A program made the translations under genes and the position numbers. Below the pieces are notes generated by a model. It searched no databases, was not told where the DNA came from, and was given only the letters and a program-made list of their open reading frames with translations. A stretch of 64,000 nt of DNA from Streptococcus ovis DSM 16829 (GTDB lineage Bacteria; Bacillota; Bacilli; Lactobacillales; Streptococcaceae). The stretch spans positions 34,301 to 98,300 of the forward strand of contig NZ_KB904580.1 of NCBI RefSeq assembly GCF_000380125.1, read 5' to 3'. Of this stretch, positions 43,459 to 54,455 are shown piece by piece (the first letter of the stretch is position 1; every line of letters begins with the position of its first letter).

Positions 43459-45174
43459 TTATTGCAACCACTTGTCCACCTTATTGGGATGTAATGCAAT
43501 CCATTCTTTGGCAGCTTGACTAGGACTTTGTCCTTCTGCAATGGCTAACATGACCGATTGCATATCTTCTGATTCCCAGTGGAACTGATCAATAATGCGA
43601 TAGGCTTTTGCCTGTTCTTCTTTTAAGCCCCGACGAGCAATCGTATGGATAGATTCCTCTTCACCAAAACTTCCTTTCGGATCTTCCAACATGACCAAAT
43701 CATATTTGGCAAACATCCAGTGAGGGCTCCAGGCAGTAATGACGATGTCTTCTCTATTTTTTAAAGCTTGTTCTAGCGAAGTCACCATGGCACCTGTTGA
43801 AGAGGAGGTCAATTCCCAAGAACTGAGATTTGCATACTCTTCCAAGGCAGTTTCTGCGCTGGACATTATTCCTGCCCCAGGCTCAATTCCGATAATCTTT
43901 TGGCCTGCTTGCGTTCTCAATTCCTCTATGCTCGAAATTCCCATGTAACTCGGTACTGCAAATCCAAGGTTTGTCCCACTTAAATTCACACCTAAGTCAA
44001 TCAATTTATCCTGATATTTTCCGTATTGTGCCTGATGGGTTGTAGGAAGCCATGCCGACACAGAAGCGTCCACATTTCCTTCTGCGACAGATTTCCAAGT
44101 GATTGCATTGTCTAAAGGAACTAGTTGGACGTCGTAGCCCTGCGATTTCAAGACTTCTGCCAGAACATTGGTCGAAGCTACTTCAGAATCCCATTCTACA
44201 TAGGCCAAGGTAATGGTATCTTTCTTCGTCCCCTGCCCTTGTAAAAAGGCTTGAGTGATGCCTGTTACCAGAAAAGAAAGAATCAGAACAGGAGTTAGAA
44301 ACTTAGCAAATTTGGACTGAACCGTATTTTTTTTCTTTGGCTGGTTCATAAATTGGGTGAATCGGTCGAGAATAATAGCCAATATTACCAAGGCCAGACC
44401 CGAAACAAACCCAGCACCAATTTCTGCATGTTGTAGGGCGGACAAGACACCATTCCCCAAACCTGGAGCACCAATCATTGAAGCCGTAACCACCATGGAC
44501 AAGGCTAACATAATCGTTTGATTGACACCAGCTAAAATCGTATTTTTGGCCAACGGTAGTTCCACCTTGAATAACCGTTGTTTATCTGTCGAACCAAATG
44601 ATTCTGCTGCCTCAATTAATTCTTCTGGAATTTCCCGAATTCCCAAGTTTGTAAAACGGACTGTCGGTGGCAAGGCAAAAATGATAGAGGCAAACACACC
44701 TGGTACCATCCCAATACCAAAGAATGCGACCGCTGGAATCAGGTACACAAAGGCTGGCATAGTCTGCATAAAGTCCAAAATCGGATTGATAATTGATTTG
44801 GCACGATTGCTTTTAGCCATCCAAATCCCTAAAGGAATCCCAATCACAATGGACATCAGACTGGCTACCAATACCAAAGTAAAGGTGTTGACCATCTCGT
44901 CCCACAGATTTTGGTTATAAATGAACAACAACCCTAGGGCAGTTAAAAACGTAAAATTCTTTTTCCTATTAGAAATATAATAAGCTAAACCTGAAACAAT
45001 CACTAACAGGATCAGCGGGTGGATAAAGGTCAAGGTATCAGAAATAAAGTCCATCACTGTATCGCCTGTCACTTGAACAACTGTAAATAATCCTGACAGT
45101 TTCTCTGTAATCCAGTTTATACTATTATCTACTAGTTCTTTTATCGGTAAACTCTGTTGCAATAAATTTTCCAC
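43459..45174 (-). CDS. busB: Glycine betaine ABC importer, fused permease and substrate-binding protein
   Basis: The 571-residue protein joins a permease (about 1-290, six or so helices; EAA loop near EESFGSTDKQRLFKVELPLAKNTILAG, cited in part) to a C-terminal OpuAC-type binding domain (about 305-571; TLAYVEWDSEVASTNVLAEVL, ITAWSPHWMFAKYDL). Aromatic residues near WLPTT and WSPHW fit the betaine cage. This is the BusAB/OpuA arrangement, with the binding domain tethered outside. It is downstream of the busA ATPase by 9 nt. The substrate is a compatible solute such as glycine betaine. Confidence 0.93.
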   Translation of the reverse strand: MENLLQQSLPIKELVDNSINWITEKLSGLFTVVQVTGDTVMDFISDTLTFIHPLILLVIVSGLAYYISNRKKNFTFLTALGLLFIYNQNLWDEMVNTFTLVLVASLMSIVIGIPLGIWMAKSNRAKSIINPILDFMQTMPAFVYLIPAVAFFGIGMVPGVFASIIFALPPTVRFTNLGIREIPEELIEAAESFGSTDKQRLFKVELPLAKNTILAGVNQTIMLALSMVVTASMIGAPGLGNGVLSALQHAEIGAGFVSGLALVILAIILDRFTQFMNQPKKKNTVQSKFAKFLTPVLILSFLVTGITQAFLQGQGTKKDTITLAYVEWDSEVASTNVLAEVLKSQGYDVQLVPLDNAITWKSVAEGNVDASVSAWLPTTHQAQYGKYQDKLIDLGVNLSGTNLGFAVPSYMGISSIEELRTQAGQKIIGIEPGAGIMSSAETALEEYANLSSWELTSSSTGAMVTSLEQALKNREDIVITAWSPHWMFAKYDLVMLEDPKGSFGEEESIHTIARRGLKEEQAKAYRIIDQFHWESEDMQSVMLAIAEGQSPSQAAKEWIALHPNKVDKWLQ

Positions 45175-45183
45175 ATTCTCCCC

Positions 45184-46377
45184 CTATTCTTGTAATTCAA
45201 TTCCTTGTTTTGTCAATGCTTCAATCACACGCCCCTTGATTAAAACACCCAGCAATCGCTCATTTTCAACCACTGCAATCGGAGCGGCTGAATCATAGAT
45301 AAGCGGTAAGATGTCTTCTAGCAAAGTATCCTTAGAGACCGTCCGAATATCTGTGTCGATGTAGTCCACCAAGCTATGTTGTCTGGCATTGGCCTTAAAG
45401 GCATCATCAGCTGAAATAACCCCCAATAATTTCCTTTGTCGATTAACTGCTAATAACATACTGACTTCCTCAGTGTCCATCCGTCTCAGAGCCACCTTAG
45501 GACCATCTATGTCAATATTAGTCGTAATAGGCTTAATCATGATATTTTGGGCAGTCAAAACTTTTGAACGATCGACATCTTCCACAAATTCACTCACAAA
45601 ATCATTCGCTGGGTTCGTCAAAATCTCCTCACCTGTCCCAATCTGCATGATTTTCCCGTCCTTCATCAGCGCAATTCGATCGCCGATGCGGAGGGCTTCA
45701 TTCAAATCATGGGTAATAAAAATAATCGTTTTTTGAACCTTTTCCTGCAAATCTAGCAACTCATCCTGCATCTCTTTTCGAATCAATGGATCTAAGGCAG
45801 AAAAGGCCTCATCCATCAACAAAATATCTGGATTATTTGCCAAAGCTCGGGCCAAACCAACCCGCTGTTGCATCCCACCTGATAACTGATCTGGATATTG
45901 ATCCTTGAAAGATAATAGGGAAGAATTTTCCAGGGCTTGCTCTGCCAATCGCTGACGGTTTGCCTTATCCACTCCCCTAACTTCTAACCCATACTCTGTG
46001 TTTTCAAGAATTGTTTTATGGGGAAAGAGTCCAAATTTTTGAAAGACCATGTTAACAGAATGACGACGAACCTGTCTTAACTCTTCTTTGTTCATCTTGG
46101 CAATATCATGCCCTTCAATATAAATACTGCCTGAACTCGGTTCAATCAAACGATTAATCAACCGAATAAGAGTTGATTTGCCACTTCCTGACAATCCCAT
46201 AATCACAAAGATTTCTCCCTGCTTTACTTCAAAACTTGCATCATAGACACCTACTGTACAGGCCGTTTTTTCTAGAATCTCCGTTTTTGATTTTCCATGT
46301 TGAATCATTTCCAATGCTTGTTTCTGCTTTTTTCCAAAAATTTTCGTCACGTTTTTAACTTCAAGTGCTGTTTTCAT
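45184..46377 (-). CDS. busA: Glycine betaine ABC importer ATPase
   Basis: Start at 46377 is set by GAGGAGG; ATG at 46401 lacks one. The 397-residue ATPase has Walker [10 protein letters not shown], signature [16 protein letters not shown], Walker [14 protein letters not shown] and H-loop [12 protein letters not shown]. Tandem CBS domains follow at about 275-397; in OpuA they sense ionic strength or c-di-AMP. The gene heads busA-busB. A putative BusR operator and promoter lie directly upstream. Confidence 0.94.
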
Positions 46378-46390
46378 ATTTCCTCCTCGT

Positions 46391-46429
46391 AAAGTGAACA
46401 TATCTTATTATAACGCGTATGGTCACTTT
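46391..46429 (-). promoter_or_regulatory. busA promoter with putative BusR operator
   Basis: The inverted repeat AAAGTGA (46391-46397)/TCACTTT (46423-46429) is separated by 25 bp. On the minus strand -35 TTTACA and -10 TATAAT (46413-46408) are 16 bp apart; one half-site overlaps the -35/spacer, the other lies at the start of transcription. The sequence resembles the BusR site AGTGAC-N-GTCACT, which I recall with a spacing near 21-22 bp, so spacing here is slightly larger. Confidence 0.65.
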
Positions 46430-46433
46430 GTAA

Positions 46434-46464
46434 AATTAAAAACCCGTAACAATGTTACAGGTTT
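46434..46464 (-). terminator. Terminator after busR
   Basis: On the minus strand AACCTGTAAC-ATT-GTTACGGGTT then TTTAATTTT, located between the busR stop and the busA promoter. Confidence 0.85.
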
Positions 46465-46476
46465 ATCACACAAGCA

Positions 46477-47112
46477 TTACAAGAAAAGATTTTTTACTCT
46501 CGAATAAGTCTGCTCATTGCCCACAAAATAAATCTTATCGCCTCTTTCCAGCAATGCGTAGGGCCCCGGAGACAGCATAATTTCCCCTTTGCGCTCAATG
46601 GCAATCAAGGTAGCTCCCGTTGTTTGCCACAGGTTGAGTTCCTTGAGTTGTTGCCCAAAAAGTGGACTGTCATTCTCTAATAACAGCTGAAAAGGTTCAA
46701 ACGGGTAGGTATTATTAATATCTCTGGTATGAGCCACTATATTTTCAACTAATTGTTCCATTTTATCCAACTCTTCTTTTTGCTTAAGTATTTGCTCTTT
46801 AAGCCCATTTTTCAGCTCTTGCAATGAGTTAGTGGATTCAAATTTATTGAGAAAGGTCTGTGCATTCTCTCTTGAGAGGACTGTCACACCACTCCCATGT
46901 TTCACTTCTACAATTTCTAAGTCTACCAGTAAGTTAATGGCTTTTCGAGCTGTTTCTGGCGAAACATTGAAGTTACTTGCCACCGTCGAACGTGCCTTTA
47001 TCTTTTCCCCTATACTGTACTTCCCGTCTACGATTTGTTTGGCCAAAGCTACCGCAACTTGCTGGTAGCGAGAACTCTTGTATTTCATCTTGTCCATTTC
47101 CTGATTTACCAT
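46477..47112 (-). CDS. busR: c-di-AMP-responsive repressor BusR
   Basis: The 211-residue protein has a GntR-type winged HTH (KYKSSRYQQVAVALAKQIVDG, then STVASNFNVSPETARKAINLL; about 10-80), a coiled linker with Glu/Lys-rich LKEQILKQKEELDKMEQL, and a C-terminal RCK_C domain (about 140-211; PLFGQQLKELNLW, RKGEIMLSPGP, LERGDKIYFVGNE). In Streptococcus agalactiae and Lactococcus, BusR binds c-di-AMP through RCK_C and represses busAB. It lies upstream of busA on the same strand but its own terminator follows. A TATAAT -10 lies at 47192-47187. Confidence 0.93.
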   Translation of the reverse strand: MVNQEMDKMKYKSSRYQQVAVALAKQIVDGKYSIGEKIKARSTVASNFNVSPETARKAINLLVDLEIVEVKHGSGVTVLSRENAQTFLNKFESTNSLQELKNGLKEQILKQKEELDKMEQLVENIVAHTRDINNTYPFEPFQLLLENDSPLFGQQLKELNLWQTTGATLIAIERKGEIMLSPGPYALLERGDKIYFVGNEQTYSRVKNLFL

Positions 47113-47256: not shown

Positions 47257-47601
47257 TTAGTAAAATTCATCCAGATAGTCTTGAATTTCTTTTTGGGCTT
47301 GATCAAAGGGAATGGCAGCAAGGAAGGACAGATGACTTCTAAAAAAGGCAGTATAGTCAATCTGGTCCGCCAGTAAGATTAGATGCCCAGTCTTGTCCTG
47401 CTGACGAATGGCGCGTGCGTAATCTAAAGCCGGCCAAATTGTGTTTTGGCTGTCATTTATGATAAAATAGGTGTTAAATACTTGGCTGGGTCTGGGGACA
47501 GTGGATAAACTATTAAGGGTCAAGTGTTTTTGAGCAAGCAGGTTTTCGAGCAATTCTTGCATCGATTGACGATAATCTGCTGGTTGAATCAGGTAAATCA
47601 T
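47257..47601 (-). CDS. Stand-alone degenerate receiver domain, probable paralogue of the adjacent LytTR regulator
   Basis: The 114-residue product aligns along its length with the receiver half of the neighbouring regulator (47719-48453): MIYLIQPAD against IYILEDD, ARAIRQQDKTGHLILLADQIDY against AKEIRQRDAHAVIVFVTTHSEF, FRSHLSFLAAIPFDQAQKEIQDYL against YKYRVSALDFIDKGLSDADFQEAV. The acidic pocket EDD has become QPAD, no Asp matches the phospho-acceptor D60, and the conserved Lys is lost. It has no DNA-binding domain. A promoter with two 21-bp-spaced repeats drives it, so it belongs to the regulon of the adjacent system. Ribosome site GAAGGAG is good. It might bind the regulator or kinase and modulate it. 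Confidence 0.65.
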   Translation of the reverse strand: MIYLIQPADYRQSMQELLENLLAQKHLTLNSLSTVPRPSQVFNTYFIINDSQNTIWPALDYARAIRQQDKTGHLILLADQIDYTAFFRSHLSFLAAIPFDQAQKEIQDYLDEFY

Positions 47602-47631
47602 GCAAACTTCTCCTTCCTATTTTTTAACAAT

Positions 47632-47698
47632 AGTATAACAAGGAAAGGCTATTAGAGTTGGTTTTGTCATGAACGGTTGATTTGAACTCATGAATGGT
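47632..47698 (-). promoter_or_regulatory. LytTR-type promoter module A (drives the pseudo-receiver gene)
   Basis: On the minus strand ACCATTCATGA (47698-47688) and ACCGTTCATGA (47677-47667) start exactly 21 bp apart. A TATACT -10 (47637-47632) lies 29 bp further. The layout is the same as modules B and C. Confidence 0.82.
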
Positions 47699-47718
47699 AA
47701 GGAATGTGAAAAAGAGAC

Positions 47719-48453
47719 ATGTTAACAATTTATATTTTAGAAGATGATTTTCTGCAACAGAGCCGTCTGGAACAAGCCATTGCACAAACGATAGCAACGG
47801 GTCCTGTTCGCTACAAATCATTAGAGGTATTTGGAAAACCGCAACAACTCTTAGATGCCATCAAAGAGAAAGGTGACCATAATCTCTTCTTTTTAGATAT
47901 TGAGATTAAGGGTGAAGAGAAAAAAGGGATGGAAATTGCGAAGGAAATCCGTCAACGGGATGCCCATGCTGTGATTGTCTTTGTTACGACCCATTCTGAA
48001 TTTATGCCCCTAACTTATAAATACCGTGTATCAGCCTTAGACTTTATTGACAAGGGCCTATCGGATGCAGATTTCCAAGAGGCGGTGGCTTCTGTCCTTG
48101 ACCATGCTTATCGCAATATCAGCACGACAGTCAGTGAGGATGCCTTTGTTTACAAGACAGAGCATTCACATATCCAAGTGCCCTTCTCGGACATTCTTTA
48201 CTTTGAGACGGCTCCGACCGTCCACAAGGTGCTGTTGACGACGAAAAACGGGACTATGGAATTTTACGGTAAGGTGTCTGAAATTGCCAAAAGTGATGAC
48301 CGCCTTTATCAGAGCCACCGTGCTTATGTGGTCAATCCAGCTAATATTATCGAGCTAGACCGCAAGGCGAATATGGTCTTTTTTGAAAATGATGAGTCAT
48401 GCTTTGTTTCTCGTATGAAATTAAAGGGATTGATTGAGAGGATGGAAAAATGA
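47719..48453 (+). CDS. LytTR-family response regulator (AgrA/BlpR/ComE-like)
   Basis: The 244-residue protein has an N-terminal receiver (IYILEDDFLQQ with acidic pocket at 8-10; phospho-acceptor D60 in LFFLDIEIKG; Lys in ALDFIDKG) and a C-terminal LytTR domain (about 140-244; VPFSDILYFETAPTVHKVLL, RLYQSHRAYVVNPANIIELDR). Such regulators bind two direct repeats about 21-22 bp apart; such pairs occur at three promoters in this stretch. It overlaps the kinase gene by 4 nt. I see no pheromone precursor nearby. Confidence 0.92.
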   Translation: MLTIYILEDDFLQQSRLEQAIAQTIATGPVRYKSLEVFGKPQQLLDAIKEKGDHNLFFLDIEIKGEEKKGMEIAKEIRQRDAHAVIVFVTTHSEFMPLTYKYRVSALDFIDKGLSDADFQEAVASVLDHAYRNISTTVSEDAFVYKTEHSHIQVPFSDILYFETAPTVHKVLLTTKNGTMEFYGKVSEIAKSDDRLYQSHRAYVVNPANIIELDRKANMVFFENDESCFVSRMKLKGLIERMEK

Positions 48454-49784
48454 GTATGATTTATCCTTTTCTCATTTTGTTTGTGGATTTGTTGGTCAAG
48501 TGGATCATCTTTCTCACCATCAGCAATCAAACATTACCTCGCTATCAGTCTTTTCTTATCGTTCTAGGACTGTCTTTGGTGACACTAATCAATCCACCTA
48601 CCATGCTCTTTCTAGAACCCTTTTACTTCCTCATACTCATCTTATTATTCCTCAAACCTCGTTGGACCAAGGCACAGGTCATCTTTTATAGCTTCTTGCC
48701 CTTTGTAACGGTTGATTTGTACGAGCGTTTATCCAATGTTTATGAGGGAATGCGACTTGTTCTGTTTGATGGAGAGAGAGCTTGGTTGCTGACTAGCGCT
48801 ATGGTCATTTTTCAATTGGGAGGCTTATTATTTGGATTTCTTCTTATCAAGATTTTGCGTCTTAATTTTACAACGCTGACTGGTATTTTTCATTATGGGA
48901 TTGGAAAACGGGCTGCGCTGATTTTAAATGGAAGTATGCTATTCTATGTCCTTCTTCTCCATCCTTTGCTTCTAGCAAGTGGGAAGGAACAGGAATTTGA
49001 GCTTATCTTTGGGGCAGAAAATGCTCAAAGTACGCTCGACTTATTTGTCCTCTACGTCTATGTCTTTATTGCTCTGCTTATTTACCTCAATTATAAGGCA
49101 AAGGAATATCTGGACAATGAATTGCAACGGAGCAAGGACCAGCAACTGTCTGCCTTGTCTTCCTATTCCGCCCACGTGGAGAGCCTCTATAAAGAACTCC
49201 GTTCTTTCCGCCACGACTATACCAATGTCCTGACCAGCCTCAATGAAGCTTTTAAGCAAGATGATTTGGCGACGGCTAAGGATATCTATCAAGCTGTCAT
49301 TGCTCAATCCGACAAAAAGTTTTACCACAGCAAGTATGATATTGCCAACCTTGCCAACTTGACCAACCCTGCCATGAAGAGCCTGATTTCTGCCAAGCTG
49401 ATGGAGGCTCAGGCTAAGGGGATTCACCTAACGGTGGAAATAGCAGAGCAGATTAGTGAGCCAAATATGGAACTCCTAGATGTGGTGGCTATCTTATCCA
49501 TCTTCCTTGACAATGCCATCGAAGCCAGTCAGGAAACTGAGGATAAACTCTTAAATTTCGCCTACTTTGCTGAGGGAGACCAGAAGATTCTCCTCATTGA
49601 AAATAGCACACTTAAAGAACGAGTGAACACGAAAACTATCTACCAGTACGGTAGGTCTAGCAAGGGAGATAATCGAGGCATCGGCCTTGCCAATATCAAA
49701 GACATTCTCGCCAAATACCCAGGTGTCAGCCTCAATACCAGTAGCGGTAATCATCGCTTTAGGCAGGAGTTGATTTTCAGATAA
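48450..49784 (+). CDS. AgrC/ComD/BlpH-like histidine kinase
   Basis: The 444-residue kinase has six or seven membrane helices in the first 215 residues and a cytoplasmic part with H255 in SFRHDYTNVL, the HPK10 type. The ATPase domain shows VVAILSIFLDNAIEASQE (N box) and GRSSKGDNRGIGLANIKDIL (G box). This class typically senses peptide pheromones. The overlap with the regulator gene implies coupled translation. The signal is unknown. Confidence 0.92.
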   Translation: MSMIYPFLILFVDLLVKWIIFLTISNQTLPRYQSFLIVLGLSLVTLINPPTMLFLEPFYFLILILLFLKPRWTKAQVIFYSFLPFVTVDLYERLSNVYEGMRLVLFDGERAWLLTSAMVIFQLGGLLFGFLLIKILRLNFTTLTGIFHYGIGKRAALILNGSMLFYVLLLHPLLLASGKEQEFELIFGAENAQSTLDLFVLYVYVFIALLIYLNYKAKEYLDNELQRSKDQQLSALSSYSAHVESLYKELRSFRHDYTNVLTSLNEAFKQDDLATAKDIYQAVIAQSDKKFYHSKYDIANLANLTNPAMKSLISAKLMEAQAKGIHLTVEIAEQISEPNMELLDVVAILSIFLDNAIEASQETEDKLLNFAYFAEGDQKILLIENSTLKERVNTKTIYQYGRSSKGDNRGIGLANIKDILAKYPGVSLNTSSGNHRFRQELIFR

Positions 49785-49795
49785 ACTGCTAGCCG

Positions 49796-49824
49796 TTGAT
49801 TTTAGATGAAAAATGAGCTATAAT
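49796..49824 (+). promoter_or_regulatory. Promoter of the antisense RNA
   Basis: -35 TTGATT (49796-49801) and -10 TATAAT (49819-49824) are spaced 17 bp. The -35 box begins 11 nt after the kinase stop codon. Confidence 0.85.
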
Positions 49825-49830
49825 AAAGAA

Positions 49831-49948
49831 AAGGAGTTGGCTTCCGACCAACTCCCTTGAGACCGTTTTAAAGACGGGACAGATGAAATTACAGTAAAAC
49901 CGCAATTCCAGACCTGTCAAAGTTAGAAGTGCGGTTTTACTGTTTTTT
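49831..49948 (+). ncRNA. Antisense RNA, probable type I antitoxin
   Basis: The predicted transcript of about 118 nt starts just after the TATAAT. It begins with a hairpin GGAGTTGG-CTTCCGA-CCAACTCC (49833-49855) and ends with a 14-bp perfect stem ACAGTAAAACCGCA (49891-49904)/TGCGGTTTTACTGT (49930-49943) plus T6. No ORF with a ribosome site lies in it. It runs opposite to the small toxin-like gene, whose stop codon lies in the T-run. On the minus strand the first hairpin followed by TTTTCTTT would end the toxin mRNA, so the two RNAs would overlap over the full length of this one. The pattern matches RatA/TxpA and SR4/BsrG systems. Confidence 0.72.
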
Positions 49949-50036
49949 ACTTATCTTTTTTATCTAGATAGGTCAACAATGCCAGTAAAAAGATGCCAGA
50001 GTTTACGATAAGCTCAAGAGCTTGATAAACTGACAT
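49947..50036 (-). CDS. Holin-like small hydrophobic peptide, putative type I toxin
   Basis: The 29-residue peptide (MSVYQALELIVNSG, then IFLLALLTYLDKKDK) looks like the putative holin-like toxins of Firmicutes: the MSVY.AL start, one membrane helix and a charged tail. AAAGGA lies 8 nt before this ATG. An in-frame ATG at 50066, ten codons upstream, has a near-perfect ribosome site (AAGGAGGTGAT, 5 nt away), so a 39-residue product is possible. The gene is opposed by the antisense RNA above. A weak TATAGT -10 lies about 50 nt before the longer start. Confidence 0.68.
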   Translation of the reverse strand: MSVYQALELIVNSGIFLLALLTYLDKKDK

Positions 50037-50156
50037 GACGGAATCCTTTCTAAGAGACAATGTCATAGGCATCACCTCCTTGTTTAGATTTCCGTCCCGC
50101 CTTCGGAACTTCCTCAACTATATTATTCGATTTTTGATAGAGAAATTGAGATATTT

Positions 50157-50224
50157 ACCATTCATTATCCCAAAACAACCGTTCATGACATCATGGACGG
50201 TTTTTACTTGTTTTTAGCTATACT
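50157..50224 (+). promoter_or_regulatory. LytTR-type promoter module B (first ABC operon)
   Basis: ACCATTCATTA (50157-50167) and ACCGTTCATGA (50178-50188) start 21 bp apart; TATACT (50219-50224) lies 30 bp beyond. AAGGAG and the permease ATG follow at 50286. Confidence 0.85.
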
Positions 50225-50285
50225 AATGCTTGTAAGAAATGAAACGAATCAAACAAGCGACTCGTCAAAAGAAAAGGAGATTACA

Positions 50286-51029
50286 ATGAACCTATTTACC
50301 TCTATTTTTAAATCTGTCTTTAAAAGACGGGATGTGATGATTTTAATGGCTTTCGCCTTGCTTCCCTTATTAGTCGCCCCTTTGGCAGATGTGCAAGATA
50401 GAAAACAGGCTGTTGATTTTACATCCAGTGCCATTGCTTATTTCAACTCAGGTATTGAGACGCAATTTCAATTATTATTACCAAGTTTGATGTTTGGATT
50501 GATTGTCTCATCTGTCTTTCATGATGAAATTACCTCAGGTATCCTATTTCTTTACAAGGACTTGAAACGCTCAGCGATTTTTAATGCGAAGTTGCTTAGC
50601 CTAGTGGCAGTTTACGGGATTTACCTCTTCTTGACCTTTGTCGTAAGTGTTTTGGCCTACTATGTCTATCTAGCGCCGACCTTTCACTTTGAACCTAAGT
50701 TTTGGATAGCCCAAGGAACTGGTCAAGTCATTTTCATGCAAATCGTGACAACCATTGCTTTTCATCTTATTTCAATGGCAATTGTCGCAGCAGTTTCTAT
50801 CAAGAAGACAACCATTCAAGCAGTCTTAGCAGGTATTCTTTTTACTCTCATATCCATGACTGCGCCTCTGTGGAATGGCTTCCGCTATATTGCTCCAAAT
50901 ACCTATCCTAAGTTGATTGATACATTATCATTTGGTTCAGCTCTGCTTATTAGCCTTAGCCTAACCCTACTATACTTTGGCCTTGCCTACTGGACTGCGA
51001 AACGCCGTTTTGACACTATTGAATACTAA
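50286..51029 (+). CDS. ABC-2 type permease, first operon
   Basis: Start at 50286 (AAGGAG 6-7 nt upstream) gives 247 residues. Six membrane helices are predicted (MILMAFALLPLLVAPL, LLPSLMFGLIVSSVF, and so on). It has the charged HDEITSGILFLYKDLKRSAIFNAKL loop (cited in part: GILFLYKDLKRS) seen also in the other permease of this operon (MFLYKDLPRKDIFRAK). That shared element marks the two as paralogues. Export substrate unknown; a peptide is plausible given the adjacent pheromone-type system. Confidence 0.78.
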   Translation: MNLFTSIFKSVFKRRDVMILMAFALLPLLVAPLADVQDRKQAVDFTSSAIAYFNSGIETQFQLLLPSLMFGLIVSSVFHDEITSGILFLYKDLKRSAIFNAKLLSLVAVYGIYLFLTFVVSVLAYYVYLAPTFHFEPKFWIAQGTGQVIFMQIVTTIAFHLISMAIVAAVSIKKTTIQAVLAGILFTLISMTAPLWNGFRYIAPNTYPKLIDTLSFGSALLISLSLTLLYFGLAYWTAKRRFDTIEY

Positions 51030-51056
51030 GATGACAGAATTTACAGGAGAAAACAC

Positions 51057-51923
51057 ATGCTTAAAATCGAAAACCTTTCAAAACAATTTGCTGGAAATGA
51101 CTTTTACTCACTTAAAGACGTAACCATGGAAATCCAAAAGGGAGAGATTGTTGGTCTTATCGGAAAAAATGGCGCTGGAAAATCGACCCTCATGAAACTG
51201 ATGGCAAAATCCCTCAAACCAACTAGCGGAACTATTACTTATAACGGGGTGGATATTCACACGACAGACAATATGCTCAAAGATTTTGGAATTATGATTG
51301 ACCCTGTCTTCTATCCAGAAATGTCTGTGATGGATAACTTGAAATTTTACTTAAAACTGCATGGAAAAACAGAATTCTACAGCAATATCGAGCCAACCTT
51401 GAAACTCTTGGAACTTTGGAATGCTCGTAACCGTAAGCCAAAAGGATTTTCTTTCGGAATGAAGCAACGGACTGCTCTTGCCATTGCCATGGTAGCCGAG
51501 CCAGACTTCCTCATCTTGGATGAGCCCTTTGTAGGATTGGACCCAATTGGGGTACAAAAACTCATTGATATTTTGAAACAATGGTCAAGCGAACGTCAGA
51601 TTTCTATGCTGATTTCTAGTCATCAGTTGGCAGAATTAGAAGCCCTTTGCCAACGCTATGTCTATATTGAGGCTGGTGAGTTAGCAGATGCCTTTGAAGG
51701 TCAAGGTGCGCCAAGTGTCTTGGTTGAACTGAAAGAAACAGCACCGCTTGCTGCCTTGCAACCATTTATGAGCGAAACGATTCGTCTTGACGGTCATACA
51801 CTTGAAATTGCAACCAACCACACCGAAGATATCAATGCCCTCTTTGCCCTACTTGGTCAAGAAGGCATGATTGAAATGATTACCATTAAAGAAAACCATC
51901 TGAAAGATATTTTCTCAGCTTAA
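51057..51923 (+). CDS. ABC transporter ATPase, first operon
   Basis: The 288-residue ATPase has Walker A GKNGAGKST, signature SFGMKQRTALAIAM, Walker B FLILDEPFVGLDP and H-loop LISSHQLAELE. The Q-loop position is IMIDPVFYPEMS, with Asp where the usual Gln would stand, again like bacteriocin-protection ATPases. A 75-residue C-terminal extension follows. It sits 27 nt after the permease with its own AGGAG. Confidence 0.88.
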   Translation: MLKIENLSKQFAGNDFYSLKDVTMEIQKGEIVGLIGKNGAGKSTLMKLMAKSLKPTSGTITYNGVDIHTTDNMLKDFGIMIDPVFYPEMSVMDNLKFYLKLHGKTEFYSNIEPTLKLLELWNARNRKPKGFSFGMKQRTALAIAMVAEPDFLILDEPFVGLDPIGVQKLIDILKQWSSERQISMLISSHQLAELEALCQRYVYIEAGELADAFEGQGAPSVLVELKETAPLAALQPFMSETIRLDGHTLEIATNHTEDINALFALLGQEGMIEMITIKENHLKDIFSA

Positions 51924-51941
51924 AATTGAAAGGAGACACCT

Positions 51942-52715
51942 ATGTCACTTATCAGACCTGTATTTGAAACCGTCTGGAAACGGAAAGAAACTAAGATTTA
52001 TCTAGCTATTGCCATTATTTTCCCCCTTGTCTTTTTAGCCTCTACCTTTTTGCCAAAGGGAAGTAACTTCATGGTACCCACCCCAGCAACTGGGGAGTTC
52101 TTCTCATACCTTGATTTACTGACTGGAATTTTAGGAGCTGCTAGTTCTTTAACGCTCCCTACTTTAGCACTTTTTCTTTTAACCTTTAGTGTTTTTCGTA
52201 GTGAAGCAGATACCCATCTGATGTTCCTCTACAAAGACCTACCTCGGAAAGATATTTTTCGTGCGAAGATTATTAGCCTCATCTTGATTGTATTGATTTT
52301 TCTAACAATTTTTGGTGTAATAATGGGAGTTATTTTCTACAGCCGAGTTGCCTATATGCCTTATGCAAAACCACAATTTTTCCCTACTAATATGGAGATA
52401 TTTGTTAGTGATCTTTCTGGTATTTGGGCATTCTTCCTAGAAAATTGTATCGGTCTTTTCTTGGCAACATTCCTCTCTCTTCGCATAGGAAAAGCAGTGA
52501 CCCTTGCGACAGCCTTCGGATATAGCATTGGAGGTATGATTTTAGTCAGCCTTGGGGGTCCTATTGCTAAATTTTTCCCAAGTGGCTACCTCAACTGGGA
52601 AAACTTTGATAGTTCTTTGTGGATAGATTTTGGAAAAGCTGGCTTGCTTTCACTCTTCTACTGCGCTATCCTAAGTTATCTCACCTACAAGCACTTTAAA
52701 ACAATGGAGTATTAA
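51942..52715 (+). CDS. ABC-2 type permease, first operon, second subunit
   Basis: The 257-residue hydrophobic protein has six predicted helices (IYLAIAIIFPLVFLASTFL, LILIVLIFLTIFGVIMGVIFY) and a HLMFLYKDLPRKDIFRAKI loop homologous to the first permease. It ends YKHFKTMEY. AAGGAG is 8 nt upstream. The stop codon overlaps the first repeat of module C, so this operon ends directly at the promoter of the next. Confidence 0.8.
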   Translation: MSLIRPVFETVWKRKETKIYLAIAIIFPLVFLASTFLPKGSNFMVPTPATGEFFSYLDLLTGILGAASSLTLPTLALFLLTFSVFRSEADTHLMFLYKDLPRKDIFRAKIISLILIVLIFLTIFGVIMGVIFYSRVAYMPYAKPQFFPTNMEIFVSDLSGIWAFFLENCIGLFLATFLSLRIGKAVTLATAFGYSIGGMILVSLGGPIAKFFPSGYLNWENFDSSLWIDFGKAGLLSLFYCAILSYLTYKHFKTMEY

Positions 52716-52782
52716 CCATTCATTACTTCAAAGCAACCGTTCATGACATCGTGGACGGTTTTGGCATGTTTTGCGCTATACT
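52715..52782 (+). promoter_or_regulatory. LytTR-type promoter module C (second ABC operon)
   Basis: ACCATTCATTA (52715-52725) and ACCGTTCATGA (52736-52746) start 21 bp apart; TATACT (52777-52782) lies 30 bp beyond. It is highly similar to module B through the whole stretch, including the GACATC.TGGACGGTTTT continuation. Confidence 0.86.
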
Positions 52783-52812
52783 ACTGTCATCAGAAAGATG
52801 AAGGAGAACACA

Positions 52813-53694
52813 ATGACACAGGAAACCTTGATTCGCATAGAAAATATCAGCAAACATTATGGAAAACAGGCTGCCCTTGACCAAGTATCTTTTAACATTC
52901 ACAGAGGCGAAATCTGTGGCCTTGTCGGTCAAAATGGTGCTGGTAAAACGACCTTAATTCGGATTATCTCTGGTCTCATTCAAGCTAGTGAGGGACAGAT
53001 TGACAAGTCTGCAGCCTTGCGTATCGGGGCCATCATCGAATCTCCAACCCTCTATCCCAATATGACAGCTTATGACAACCTCATGTATGCAGCGCCGCAA
53101 TGTCACATCGAAAATCCCAAAGAGCGTGTCACAGAAGTTTTAAGCCTAGTCGGTCTTGCTCAAGTTGATAAAAAGAAGAAGGTCAAAGACTTCTCACTCG
53201 GGATGCGTCAGCGGGTGGCCATTGCATTGTCCTTGATTGACTTCCCAGAGTTTCTGATTTTAGACGAACCCATCAACGGTCTTGATCCATCTGGTATCAA
53301 GGAAATGCGTGAAATCATTCTTAATCTCCGTGACACCTACAGTATTACCGTCTTGATTTCCAGTCATATCTTGACAGAATTGGAATTATTGGCAGACCGT
53401 TTCGTTATCGTCCATAAGGGGCAAGTTATTCGTGACATTTCCAAAGAAGCCTTATAAAATGAAGTTAGTGATAAGATTTTGCTAGAAGTGGACCAACCGC
53501 AATTCGTGGCAGATACCTTGAAGGCAAATGGCTTGACTTATACGATTAATGAACACTCTCAACGCCTAGAGATTGAGCCAACCATCACCGTTCACGATTT
53601 ACTAACCATTATCATGGCAACAGACGCTACTGTCCAAGCCATCTACCGTCGCAATGTGTCACTCGAAGATTATTATTTGAATTTATTAGATTAG
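52813..53694 (+). pseudogene. ABC transporter ATPase with an in-frame stop codon
   Basis: From the ATG at 52813 (AAGGAG upstream) the reading frame encodes Walker A GQNGAGKTT, Q-loop area IIESPTLYPNM, signature SLGMRQRVAIALS, Walker B FLILDEPINGLDP and H-loop ISSHILTELE. At 53455-53457 a TAA interrupts it after KEAL; the same frame continues NEVSDKILLEVDQPQF to a stop at 53694, encoding the usual C-terminal extension. So a single substitution makes a 214-residue protein with a complete nucleotide-binding core lacking about 79 C-terminal residues. It could be inactive, or a shortened but working ATPase. A sequencing error cannot be excluded. Confidence 0.8.
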
Positions 53695-53703
53695 GAGAAC
53701 GTT

Positions 53704-54411
53704 ATGTTTGCATCCCTTAAAGCGGATTTATACCGCATGAGAAAAGAAAGATTGTCCCTTGTAGCAACGATTTTTCTAGGTTTATTTACCCTAGCTATGA
53801 CCCTTGGAGAAATGGGAGATAAAACGGTAGCAGGAGCAGAGTCTTCCATGGCTACCATGACCCTATTTTTGGTCATGTTCTTCCTCACCCCAGCTAAAAT
53901 CTTCTTTGGTGAAGAGTACGCTAACCGCACCATCAATAACTTCTTGATCAAACACCCCAACCGCTTCTTCGTTTTCACTTATAAATGGTTGGCCATGATG
54001 AGTCTGTCCCTAGCCTATGTTTTGGGAGTGATTGCCCTTATTACGGCCCTCCGTCTCGTGACAGTTGGCCAATTCCAACTTCTGCCTTTACTAGCTGCCT
54101 TTGTCAGACAATTACCATTTTACCTTGTCGCCATTAGCATCTGCGGAACCTTGATGACGATTTTACCAAAACTTTACCAAACCTATGTCACTTACATTTT
54201 ACTCGCTCTGCTCTTTGACCAAATCTTCTTGCAACTTAGCGTCTTTGTCTTGAAAACACCAATTTTTGCACCATTCTTGATGTTCAATCAATTGCATGCC
54301 AGCATTGCCCCAAATCAAGTAGCCCCCCTATCTATTGGAGTAGCCCTTGTCAGCAGCCTTGCTTACTACGGCGTGACTTACTACCTTTTTAGTAAACGAG
54401 AGTTTAAGTAA
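53704..54411 (+). CDS. ABC-2 type permease, second operon
   Basis: The 235-residue protein has six predicted helices (LVATIFLGLFTLAMTLG, MTLFLVMFFLTPAKIFFGEEYANRT in part, LSLAYVLGVIALITAL). The FFGEEYANRTINNFLIKHPNR loop fits the cytoplasmic coupling region. It lies 9 nt after the interrupted ATPase with AGGAG, and a terminator follows. It looks like the single permease of a two-gene exporter under module C. Confidence 0.8.
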   Translation: MFASLKADLYRMRKERLSLVATIFLGLFTLAMTLGEMGDKTVAGAESSMATMTLFLVMFFLTPAKIFFGEEYANRTINNFLIKHPNRFFVFTYKWLAMMSLSLAYVLGVIALITALRLVTVGQFQLLPLLAAFVRQLPFYLVAISICGTLMTILPKLYQTYVTYILLALLFDQIFLQLSVFVLKTPIFAPFLMFNQLHASIAPNQVAPLSIGVALVSSLAYYGVTYYLFSKREFK

Positions 54412-54421
54412 AAAATACACG

Positions 54422-54455
54422 AAAAAATCGCTCATGAATTCATGAACGATTTTTC
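54422..54455. terminator. Bidirectional terminator, palindromic core
   Basis: AAAAAATCG...CGATTTTT encloses the perfect palindrome TTCATGAATTCATGAA (one mismatch in context). It lies between converging genes. Confidence 0.85.

What the first reader, a model, noticed from the sequence alone, without database searches (positions are those of the whole stretch)
47257..54411. A pheromone-type two-component regulon with three cloned promoter modules and no visible pheromone gene
Seen: three promoters share a precise design: two direct repeats (ACC[AG]TTCAT-type) starting exactly 21 bp apart, then 29-30 bp to TATACT. They drive the pseudo-receiver gene (module A), the permease-ATPase-permease operon (B) and the ATPase-permease operon (C). 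Established: LytTR regulators of the AgrA/BlpR/ComE type bind such paired repeats, and HPK10 kinases sense peptides. Inference: the 47.7-kb regulator controls these transporters. The pair has no AgrD/ComC-like gene, so the signal could come from elsewhere or be a foreign peptide. Modules B and C are nearly identical over 50 bp, which implies recent duplication.
Basis: partly seen in the sequence, partly recalled or inferred. Interest (0 to 1): 0.75.

Follow-up and report, generated by a model that had tools for sequence, protein, structure and literature searches.

The report
Pheromone-less Blp-type regulon driving ABC transporters
A streptococcus carries a two-component switch closely related to the one other streptococci use to time their bacteriocin production, but here no signal-peptide gene is visible and the switch's promoters stand in front of membrane transporters and a small companion protein that looks like a dead copy of the switch's own signal-receiving part.

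Summary
Three promoters (A 47698-, B 50157+, C 52715+) carry ACCATTCAT-N12-ACCGTTCAT, repeats 21 bp apart, 31-32 bp before TATACT; no other close match exists in the 2.36-Mb draft genome. In related Streptococcus loci the module recurs before the same transporter operon in 20 of 21 testable loci, 32 bp from the -10 hexamer in all 20. Regulator R falls in a clade near, not inside, the Blp bacteriocin regulators. The pseudo-receiver belongs to one family with the gene at the blpT position of blp loci, published as of unknown function. Its closest solved relatives are ComE receivers; the phospho-acceptor Asp is Ile, Val or Thr in 29 of 29 aligned members. A double-glycine peptide is near R in 16 of 18 Blp-type loci but 1 of 22 of this kind; the genome has no C39 exporter match. 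Best reading: a BlpRH-like system kept as a sense-and-defend module, switching on lantibiotic-immunity-like ABC-2 transporters plus a pseudo-receiver that probably feeds back on R. Signal, feedback and DNA binding are inferred. New variant of a known kind.

The parts
47257..47601 (-). Gene A: 114-aa stand-alone pseudo-receiver, same family as the gene at the blpT position of blp loci
   Evidence: No Pfam or NCBIfam family; A2 profile finds the ComE receiver first in PDB, E 1.7e-5; hhalign to R 92%, E 5.5e-7; phospho-Asp position I/V/T in 17 of 17
47669..47698 (-). Module A operator ACCATTCATGAGTTCAAATCAACCGTTCAT, in front of gene A; TATACT 31 bp downstream
47719..48453 (+). R: response regulator, receiver plus LytTR domain, ComE/BlpR/AgrA type
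   Evidence: LytTR 8.6e-17, Response_reg 6e-10; ComE 4cbv 2.6e-43; tree
48450..49784 (+). K: HPK10-like histidine kinase with H, N and G boxes
   Evidence: HATPase_c_5 2.2e-18; FRHDYTN at 253, DNAIEA at 354, RGIGL at 409; 5 hydrophobic segments by a simple hydropathy scan
50157..50186 (+). Module B operator ACCATTCATTATCCCAAAACAACCGTTCAT; TATACT 32 bp downstream
   Evidence: conserved before P1 in 20 of 21 testable loci
50177..50202 (+). Terminator-like hairpin whose 5' arm is the proximal repeat of module B
   Evidence: -14.6 kcal/mol for the 36-nt fold
50286..51029 (+). P1: ABC-2-type permease, 247 aa
   Evidence: ABC2_membrane_4 20.1 bits, below the 27 cut-off; 6 hydrophobic segments
51057..51923 (+). 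N1: ABC ATPase, 288 aa
   Evidence: ABC_tran 5.4e-31; TIGR03740 lantibiotic protection 169.9 bits, cut-off 309.75; Walker A, signature and Walker B present
51942..52715 (+). P2: membrane permease, 257 aa
   Evidence: No Pfam match; 5 hydrophobic segments; relatives at 36-49% in the other 21 P1N1P2 loci
52715..52744 (+). Module C operator ACCATTCATTACTTCAAAGCAACCGTTCAT, starting on the last base of the P2 stop codon; TATACT 32 bp downstream
52813..53457 (+). N2: ABC ATPase ending at an in-frame TAA after 214 aa; catalytic motifs are upstream of the stop
   Evidence: ABC_tran 3.7e-30; TIGR03740 212.3 bits, cut-off 309.75; motifs
53479..53694 (+). Continuation of the N2 frame after the stop (71-aa ORF)
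   Evidence: no Pfam match
53704..54411 (+). P3: membrane permease, 235 aa, probable partner of N2
   Evidence: No Pfam match; relatives at up to 45% identity, 44 of 284 genus genomes counting this one; no module in the short stretches around the 19 fetched from other genomes

Best explanation
This is a pheromone-less Blp-type regulon. K, an HPK10-like kinase, senses a peptide not encoded in the locus (most likely a foreign or host-associated antimicrobial or bacteriocin-like peptide, possibly one the lineage once made) and phosphorylates R. R binds as a dimer to the 30-bp operator (two 9-bp repeats, same helix face, 21 bp apart) and recruits polymerase to the TATACT promoter 31-32 bp downstream. 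Three operons come on: the P1-N1-P2 ABC-2 transporter (the target shared with other species), a second ABC-2 unit N2-P3 that acquired the same operator here, and gene A. A is a degenerate, non-phosphorylatable receiver of the BlpT family; being under the same operator as R's targets and related to R's own receiver, it most likely limits R by making non-productive heterodimers or occupying K. Shown by sequence: gene identities, operator geometry, conservation, the lost phospho-acceptor, no GG peptide near the locus and no C39 exporter match in the genome. Inferred: R binding, signal, transporter substrate, negative feedback.
For: Operator only at these three operons. In 22 P1N1P2 loci (405 kb) 36 modules at spacing 21, one at 16, none at the other spacings tested from 15 to 27, none in reversed sequence; 32 bp to the -10 in 20 of 20 P1 promoters with a module. 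Modules also precede A in 12 of 15 loci that have A, and the stand-alone LytTR gene in 3 of 3 (my tally). R lies in a supported 36-row clade (99/88) near the Blp regulators. Kinase boxes intact. A. GG peptide 1 of 22 here against 16 of 18 in Blp-type loci; no C39 match. N1 and N2 score best against TIGR03740, under cut-off. Published: BlpR promoters have 9-bp tandem repeats and an extended -10 (PMC4739728, passages); the BlpR/BlpS operator is 30 bp (PMC8545106, passages); blpT is in the BlpR regulon (PMC6560143, passages); inactive ComE homologues lower ComE output, read by the authors as heterodimers (PMC12323615, passages).
Against: No binding, expression or transport data. A is not found in 7 of 22 P1N1P2 loci, so feedback by A is not essential. 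The S. mitis-type A subfamily alone does not find receivers; the link runs through the window-type subfamily, and no structure could be predicted. Both ATPases fail the lantibiotic-protection cut-off. S. thoraltensis has P1N1P2 but no module at my threshold (L129). One relative, S. cuniculipharyngis, has a GG peptide by the kinase, so a signal gene can belong to this clade. P1N1P2 needs 3 changes on the R tree, at least 2 forced by starred branches, so the pairing is not one clean clade. The truncated N2 may mean that the C unit is decaying.
Confidence: 0.6

Rival explanations
1. A working quorum-sensing system whose pheromone is encoded elsewhere in the genome or is not a GG peptide, with the transporters exporting or tolerating it.
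For: GG peptides BlpC and ComC activate HPK10 kinases (PMC9638458, passages). Two GG bacteriocin-type ORFs lie at C18:198-199 kb, each behind a Blp-like 21-bp module exactly 31 bp from TATACT. R is the only ComE/BlpR-clade regulator found: of the six other LytTR hits three are 23-28% identical and three give no blastp hit. Half-sites ending ATGA also occur in some Blp-type loci, so the half-site difference is not absolute. Some relatives encode tiny peptides at the head of the P1 operon.
Against: No Peptidase_C39 match at E<=0.001 to process a GG peptide (24-contig draft). The C18 half-sites end in AGGA/AGGC and the modules do not appear in the 3-mismatch search with R's pattern. The two C18 peptides look like bacteriocin precursors, not short pheromones (my reading).
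Confidence: 0.22
2. A decaying remnant of an ancestral bacteriocin locus: regulators and operators persist but the system no longer responds to anything.
For: No stand-alone LytTR gene in the locus, no GG peptide, no C39 match; N2 carries an in-frame stop; A is not found in 7 of 22 relatives.
Against: R and the operator-to-promoter geometry are strongly conserved across species (R 66-77% identity; 20 of 20 promoters at exactly 32 bp) and N1 is 71.9-83.3% identical; the R, K, P1, N1 and P2 frames are uninterrupted here.
Confidence: 0.1
3. The regulon is as in the best explanation, but A is not a feedback inhibitor: it is a positive or specificity partner of R or K, or acts outside the pathway.
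For: Pseudo-receivers can act by heterodimers that change which genes are read, or might affect kinase reactions (PMC12632262, passages).
Against: No direct evidence either way; A shows no DNA-binding domain, so an activator role would have to go through R or K.
Confidence: 0.25

Closest known systems
BlpT-BlpS-BlpR-BlpH(-BlpC-BlpAB) bacteriocin regulon of Streptococcus pneumoniae; S. mitis SK642 locus L177 as the named sequence compared here
   Same: ComE-type LytTR regulator, HPK10 kinase, divergent small gene of the same family as A; tandem 9-bp repeats before a -10 element on the targets, blpT a unit of its own (PMC4739728, passages).
   Different: No GG peptide in the locus, no C39 exporter match; half-sites ...CATKA here, mostly ...AGGA or ...AAGA (some ...ATGA) in the Blp-type loci; targets are ABC-2 transporters; no stand-alone LytTR gene (blpS) here.
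GSP-BlpRH-BlpS gallocin system of S. gallolyticus (PMC8545106, abstract and passages)
   Same: 30-bp operator confined to the regulon; a LytTR-only protein next to R in 3 of 22 P1N1P2 loci as in that system.
   Different: That system has a pheromone (GSP) and bacteriocins; the LytTR-only repressor is absent in the window.
BlpRH systems without detectable BlpC (PMC9638458, passages)
   Same: That survey reports BlpC-less BlpRH in isolates of several species, S. suis among them, and speculates on other peptides.
   Different: The passages seen do not tie BlpC loss to an ABC-2 transporter regulon or operator geometry, and do not mention BlpT.
BfrAB of S. gordonii/S. sanguinis (recalled; only papers naming it were listed; original not read)
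   Same: Two-component system reported to control several ABC transporter operons (recalled).
   Different: Recalled binding motif differs; relationship to R was not tested here.
ComE receiver structures 4ml3, 4mld, 4cbv
   Same: First, second and fifth best solved relatives of gene A.
   Different: ComE has a phospho-acceptor Asp (replaced on purpose in some of these entries, recalled) and a LytTR domain; A has neither.
Lantibiotic immunity (TIGR03740) and PSM exporter Pmt ABC systems
   Same: ATPase plus small multi-pass permeases; N1 and N2 score best against TIGR03740.
   Different: All scores are well below the curated cut-offs.

Membership tests
BlpRH quorum-sensing bacteriocin system | ComE/BlpR-type receiver-LytTR regulator next to an HPK10 kinase | tested here: met
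BlpRH quorum-sensing bacteriocin system | Operator of two 9-bp direct repeats 21 bp apart before a -10 element at target operons | tested here: met
BlpRH quorum-sensing bacteriocin system | Double-glycine pheromone gene (BlpC) in the locus | tested here: not met
   window none; 1 of 22 P1N1P2 loci; positive control 16 of 18 (any GG peptide, some of them bacteriocin-like); reversed control 0 of 22
BlpRH quorum-sensing bacteriocin system | C39-peptidase ABC exporter (BlpA) | tested here: not met
   PF03412: 0 matches at E<=0.001 in the own genome (24-contig draft)
BlpRH quorum-sensing bacteriocin system | Bacteriocin genes among the targets | tested here: inconclusive
   No GG peptide near the locus; two GG ORFs behind Blp-like modules of a different half-site at C18
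BlpRH quorum-sensing bacteriocin system | R binds the operators and responds to a peptide through K | not testable with these tools
   needs EMSA and reporters
BlpT family | Small gene divergent from blpSRH, same profile family | tested here: met
   hhalign A3 vs A2 98.6%, E 1.1e-15; the A profile finds the gene, 37.6-54.8 bits, in 18 of 18 loci that had been fetched with an S. mitis member. Named anchor is S. mitis SK642 (L177); no pneumococcal BlpT sequence was available, so the name rests on position
Pseudo-receiver | Receiver homology with phosphotransfer residues missing | tested here: met
   Homology; phospho-Asp position I/V/T in 17 of 17 and I/V in 12 of 12. Acid-pair positions (aligned by eye) Q in 11 and P in 13 of 17. 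Fold itself untested (prediction switched off)
Staphylococcal AgrA/AgrC | NCBIfam equivalog cut-off | tested here: not met
   140.3 of 400 and 138.3 of 500 bits
Lantibiotic protection ABC ATPase TIGR03740 | Curated cut-off 309.75 bits | tested here: not met
   N1 169.9, N2 212.3 (the part before the stop only)
Pmt phenol-soluble modulin exporter | PmtA/PmtC cut-offs 350/375 bits | tested here: not met
   N1 102.7/128.9; N2 107.9/172.1

The most novel reading that the evidence does not exclude
The BlpT family, published as of unknown function, is a family of stand-alone pseudo-receivers that the Blp/ComE-type regulator induces through its own operator and that titrates that regulator (or its kinase) by receiver-receiver pairing: a dedicated, self-induced decoy built from a regulator's own signal-receiving half, used both in bacteriocin quorum sensing and in this pheromone-less transporter branch.
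Probability: 0.33. Interest if true: 0.68.

Novelty: new variant of a known kind. Interest (0 to 1): 0.5.

Why it matters
The blp system is a textbook streptococcal quorum-sensing switch, yet blpT has no function in the papers seen here. Reading it as a pseudo-receiver gives a concrete, testable role. The locus also shows how such a switch can lack a pheromone gene and keep a precisely conserved promoter set on transporters that may protect against peptides made by competitors, i.e. eavesdropping or defence instead of signalling.

Tried and rejected
Rejected: (1) modules are chance or genome-wide repeats (three close hits, all here). (2) R is AgrA (140.3 bits against a cut-off of 400). (3) The transporters are bona fide lantibiotic-protection or Pmt members (cut-offs not met). 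(4) The Hol_Tox ORF is a conserved part of the system: no relative of it appeared among ORFs of 35 aa or more in the 28 loci annotated. (5) N2-P3 is an ancestral target: P3 relatives reach only 45% and the 19 fetched from other genomes have no module in their short flanks. (6) BfrAB as the direct counterpart: only papers naming it were listed; left open.

Led nowhere: Msa-family literature; S. suis VirR/LytTR literature; PDB search with the S. mitis-type A family; direct comparison of that subfamily with R; a paper opened in outline only and not used (PMC8895600).

Rows dropped or untestable: 23 loci (window included) have N1 at 65% or more; L156 (S. hyovaginalis) has no intact R ORF in my ORF list and was left out, giving 22. 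L105 could not be tested for module B because the contig ends there. GG spans were shortened by contig ends in L104, L105, L106, L109, L135 and, by the stretch fetched, in three of the 18 control loci. Eight of the 22 rows are near-identical S. suis-type loci, so counts overstate independent evidence. The 18 control loci were chosen by me among 30 offered from 46 matching genomes.
Full report
What was checked. The window lies at C19:34301-98300 of a 2.36-Mb, 24-contig draft genome. The genus is Streptococcus: a same-genus contig, G021:C4 of 80310 bp, matches a named record in length and content (S. merionis NZ_KB904541.1). The species was not identified.

The observation. ACCRTTCAT-N12-ACCRTTCAT occurs three times in the window, never in 100 shuffles, and a looser half-site pattern gives only those three in the whole genome. 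With three mismatches allowed, four more hits appear against four in the reversed control, so they are background. The repeats start 21 bp apart; TATACT lies 31 bp (A) or 32 bp (B, C) after the second 9-mer; B and C agree at 43 of 50 positions, but only 15 of 40 just upstream. A plain sigma-70 scan lists none of the three promoters, which fits activator-dependent promoters without a -35 box but is no support in itself.

The genes. R has a receiver (6e-10) and a LytTR domain (8.6e-17); K has a GHKL ATPase domain with H, N and G boxes like those given for HPK10 kinases in PMC12323615 (passages). The best solved relative of R is ComE (2.6e-43). P1, P2 and P3 have 5-6 hydrophobic segments; N1 and N2 are ABC ATPases whose best NCBIfam score is lantibiotic protection TIGR03740, below cut-off. 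N2 ends at an in-frame TAA at 53455-53457, after its catalytic motifs, and the frame continues to 53694; I report it as it stands.

Conservation. Searching 197 genus genomes with gene A gave 29 with a match, this one included. A profile of 14 R proteins brought in 80 loci with record titles, the best of 186. Twenty-three loci, counting the window, have N1 at 65% or more; one without an intact R ORF (L156) was left out. The 22 include S. merionis, S. saliviloxodontae, S. loxodontisalivarius, S. suis (seven records plus a near-identical MAG), S. pacificus, S. ovuberis, S. entericus, S. australis, S. rubneri, S. cuniculipharyngis and S. thoraltensis. In their 405 kb (for the window, 20 kb of it), my scoring matrix finds 36 modules at spacing 21, one at 16, none at the other spacings from 15 to 27, and none in reversed sequence; a module precedes P1 in 20 of 21 testable loci and the -10 hexamer is exactly 32 bp from the second repeat in all 20. 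I wrote the matrix and threshold after seeing the motif, so the spacing contrast and the reversed control are the fair tests. Modules also precede A in 12 of the 15 loci where A is found, and the stand-alone LytTR (blpS-like) gene in 3 of 3 (my tally). This is strong comparative evidence that one regulator serves these promoters.

The tree (101 rows of R, IQ-TREE, midpoint root). The window's R sits in a supported set of 36 rows (99/88) that holds all 22 P1N1P2 rows. The regulators of the 18 Blp-type control loci and of S. mitis SK642 fall in another supported set of 30 (100/95). Between the two lies a set of 19 rows (S. parasanguinis, S. gordonii, Oribacterium and others), joined to the window's side with weaker support (95/76). 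So R is a near relative of Blp regulators, not one of them. P1N1P2 needs three changes on the tree, at least two forced. Three other response regulators of the same genome are 23-28% identical to R and fall far outside. Within the 36, a group of 12 rows lacks P1N1P2; its eight S. suis loci have two to five modules each, several of them before small ORFs or a 216-aa protein that in the one case tested is of the CPBP/Rce1 family.

Gene A. Pfam and NCBIfam have no family for it; of eight A-family relatives scanned, two give Response_reg below cut-off (17.2 and 21.5 of 30.2 bits). The profile of 17 A sequences finds S. pneumoniae ComE receiver chains first in the PDB (E 1.7e-5); of 62 matches the 60 shown are, by their names, receiver or two-component proteins apart from one uncharacterised chain, most with weak E-values. 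hhalign aligns A with R's receiver (92%, E 5.5e-7). In the own genome the A profile also picks up R (1.4e-11) and three other response regulators (tiny databases, so lenient E-values). At the phospho-Asp position the 17 A proteins have I (15), V (1) or T (1); the acid-pair positions, aligned by eye, are mostly Q (11) and P (13), with one E. A second subfamily, found with the S. mitis SK642 gene in 46 of 284 genus genomes, sits beside blpS-like and blpR-like genes; it matches the first subfamily at 98.6%, E 1.1e-15, and has I or V at that position in 12 of 12, though alone it does not reach receivers. Published descriptions have blpT at the edge of the blp locus next to blpSRH, with its own BlpR-type promoter and unknown function (PMC4739728, PMC4860687, PMC4517551: passages). 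So A is most likely BlpT, and BlpT most likely a pseudo-receiver. No pneumococcal BlpT sequence was available to close the loop. On whether this is in print: of 13 papers holding BlpT and S. pneumoniae I saw passages of six, none making the claim; a BlpT plus receiver search listed 5 of 6 papers, by title unrelated except one on S. thermophilus that I did not open; two searches listed none. Most subscription journals are not held.

The missing signal. A GG-leader scan within about 5 kb of R finds a peptide in 16 of 18 Blp-type loci and in 1 of 22 P1N1P2 loci (reversed control 0 of 22). Some of the 16 are bacteriocin-like rather than pheromone-like. The exception among the 22, S. cuniculipharyngis, encodes MTSSIKDFGKNFQTLNVTQLKSVIGG... 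beside an ABC-ATPase-like ORF (29.8% to N1 as L056), which suggests the branch once had, or can take up, a pheromone. The own genome has no Peptidase_C39 match (draft assembly). It does hold two GG bacteriocin-type ORFs at C18:198-199 kb, each behind a Blp-like module 31 bp from TATACT (the second is weaker and was not found by the 3-mismatch pattern), with no LytTR gene on that contig. Since R is the only ComE/BlpR-clade regulator found, and half-sites ending ATGA also occur in some Blp-type loci, these could be weak or former targets of R; untested. BlpC-less BlpRH systems were already reported (PMC9638458, passages).

Mechanism. I favour: foreign or host-associated peptide to K, R phosphorylation, dimer on the 30-bp operator, transporter induction for peptide tolerance, and A as self-induced brake. 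Support for the brake is by analogy: inactive ComE homologues lower ComE activity in S. mutans, interpreted as heterodimers (PMC12323615, passages), BlpS represses apparently by competing at the operator (PMC8545106, passages), and pseudo-receivers are known or proposed to act through heterodimers or on kinases (PMC12632262, passages). The direction of A's effect is not shown.

Side observation. In B and C the proximal repeat is also the 5' arm of a terminator-like hairpin (the scan lists B's, folds both). Of ten other loci folded, a hairpin stands at the same place in six (S. merionis, S. loxodontisalivarius, S. suis, S. ovuberis, S. entericus, S. cuniculipharyngis), often with changed sequence, and not in four (L104, S. 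pacificus, S. australis, S. azizii); a strict test for the exact inverted five letters is met by only 5 of 89 modules. It probably ends the upstream transcript just before the next promoter.

Noticed in passing
49947-50066 (-): Hol_Tox-family ORF (PF16935, 1.9e-8; NCBIfam ComI 20 bits, below cut-off) beside a hairpin-rich stretch at about 49816-49940; looks like a type I toxin unit between K and module B, not seen in 28 annotated relatives.
   Followed up: partly
50177-50202, 52735-52760 and L103, L106, L108, L115, L127, L133: The promoter-proximal repeat doubles as one arm of a terminator-like hairpin; kept in six of ten other loci folded.
   Followed up: partly
54422-54455: Terminator-like palindrome after P3 whose arms contain CGTTCATGA, resembling R half-sites.
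   Followed up: no
53455-53457: In-frame stop in the second ATPase gene, downstream of its catalytic motifs.
   Followed up: partly
L254:9432-12110 (own genome C18, about 197.4-200.1 kb): Two double-glycine bacteriocin-type ORFs with Blp-like modules 31 bp from TATACT and proteins resembling CPBP proteases by eye; no LytTR gene on the contig.
   Followed up: partly
L122-L125, L128, L130, L131, L139 (S. suis, second system): Two to five modules per locus, several nearly identical, before small ORFs and, in some, a 216-aa protein (CPBP/Rce1 family where tested, L139); looks like a modular immunity or bacteriocin island.
   Followed up: partly
L142 and L146 (Oribacterium), L154 (Lactobacillales MAG): The same kind of module outside Streptococcus, about 1.4 kb after R and just before an ABC ATPase gene in Oribacterium, suggesting transfer of the switch; my kinase regex found no kinase ORF there.
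   Followed up: partly
L127:13840-14116; L060:1242-1541: Tiny, often basic peptide ORFs with ribosome sites ahead of P1, in operons that also hold CPBP-family (L054, L056) or Msa-family (L054, L060) membrane proteins; possible leaderless bacteriocins or signals.
   Followed up: partly
43459-47112: Betaine-type ABC transporter with a GntR-type regulator that looks like BusR-BusAB (names recalled from the ORF translations, not tested).
   Followed up: no
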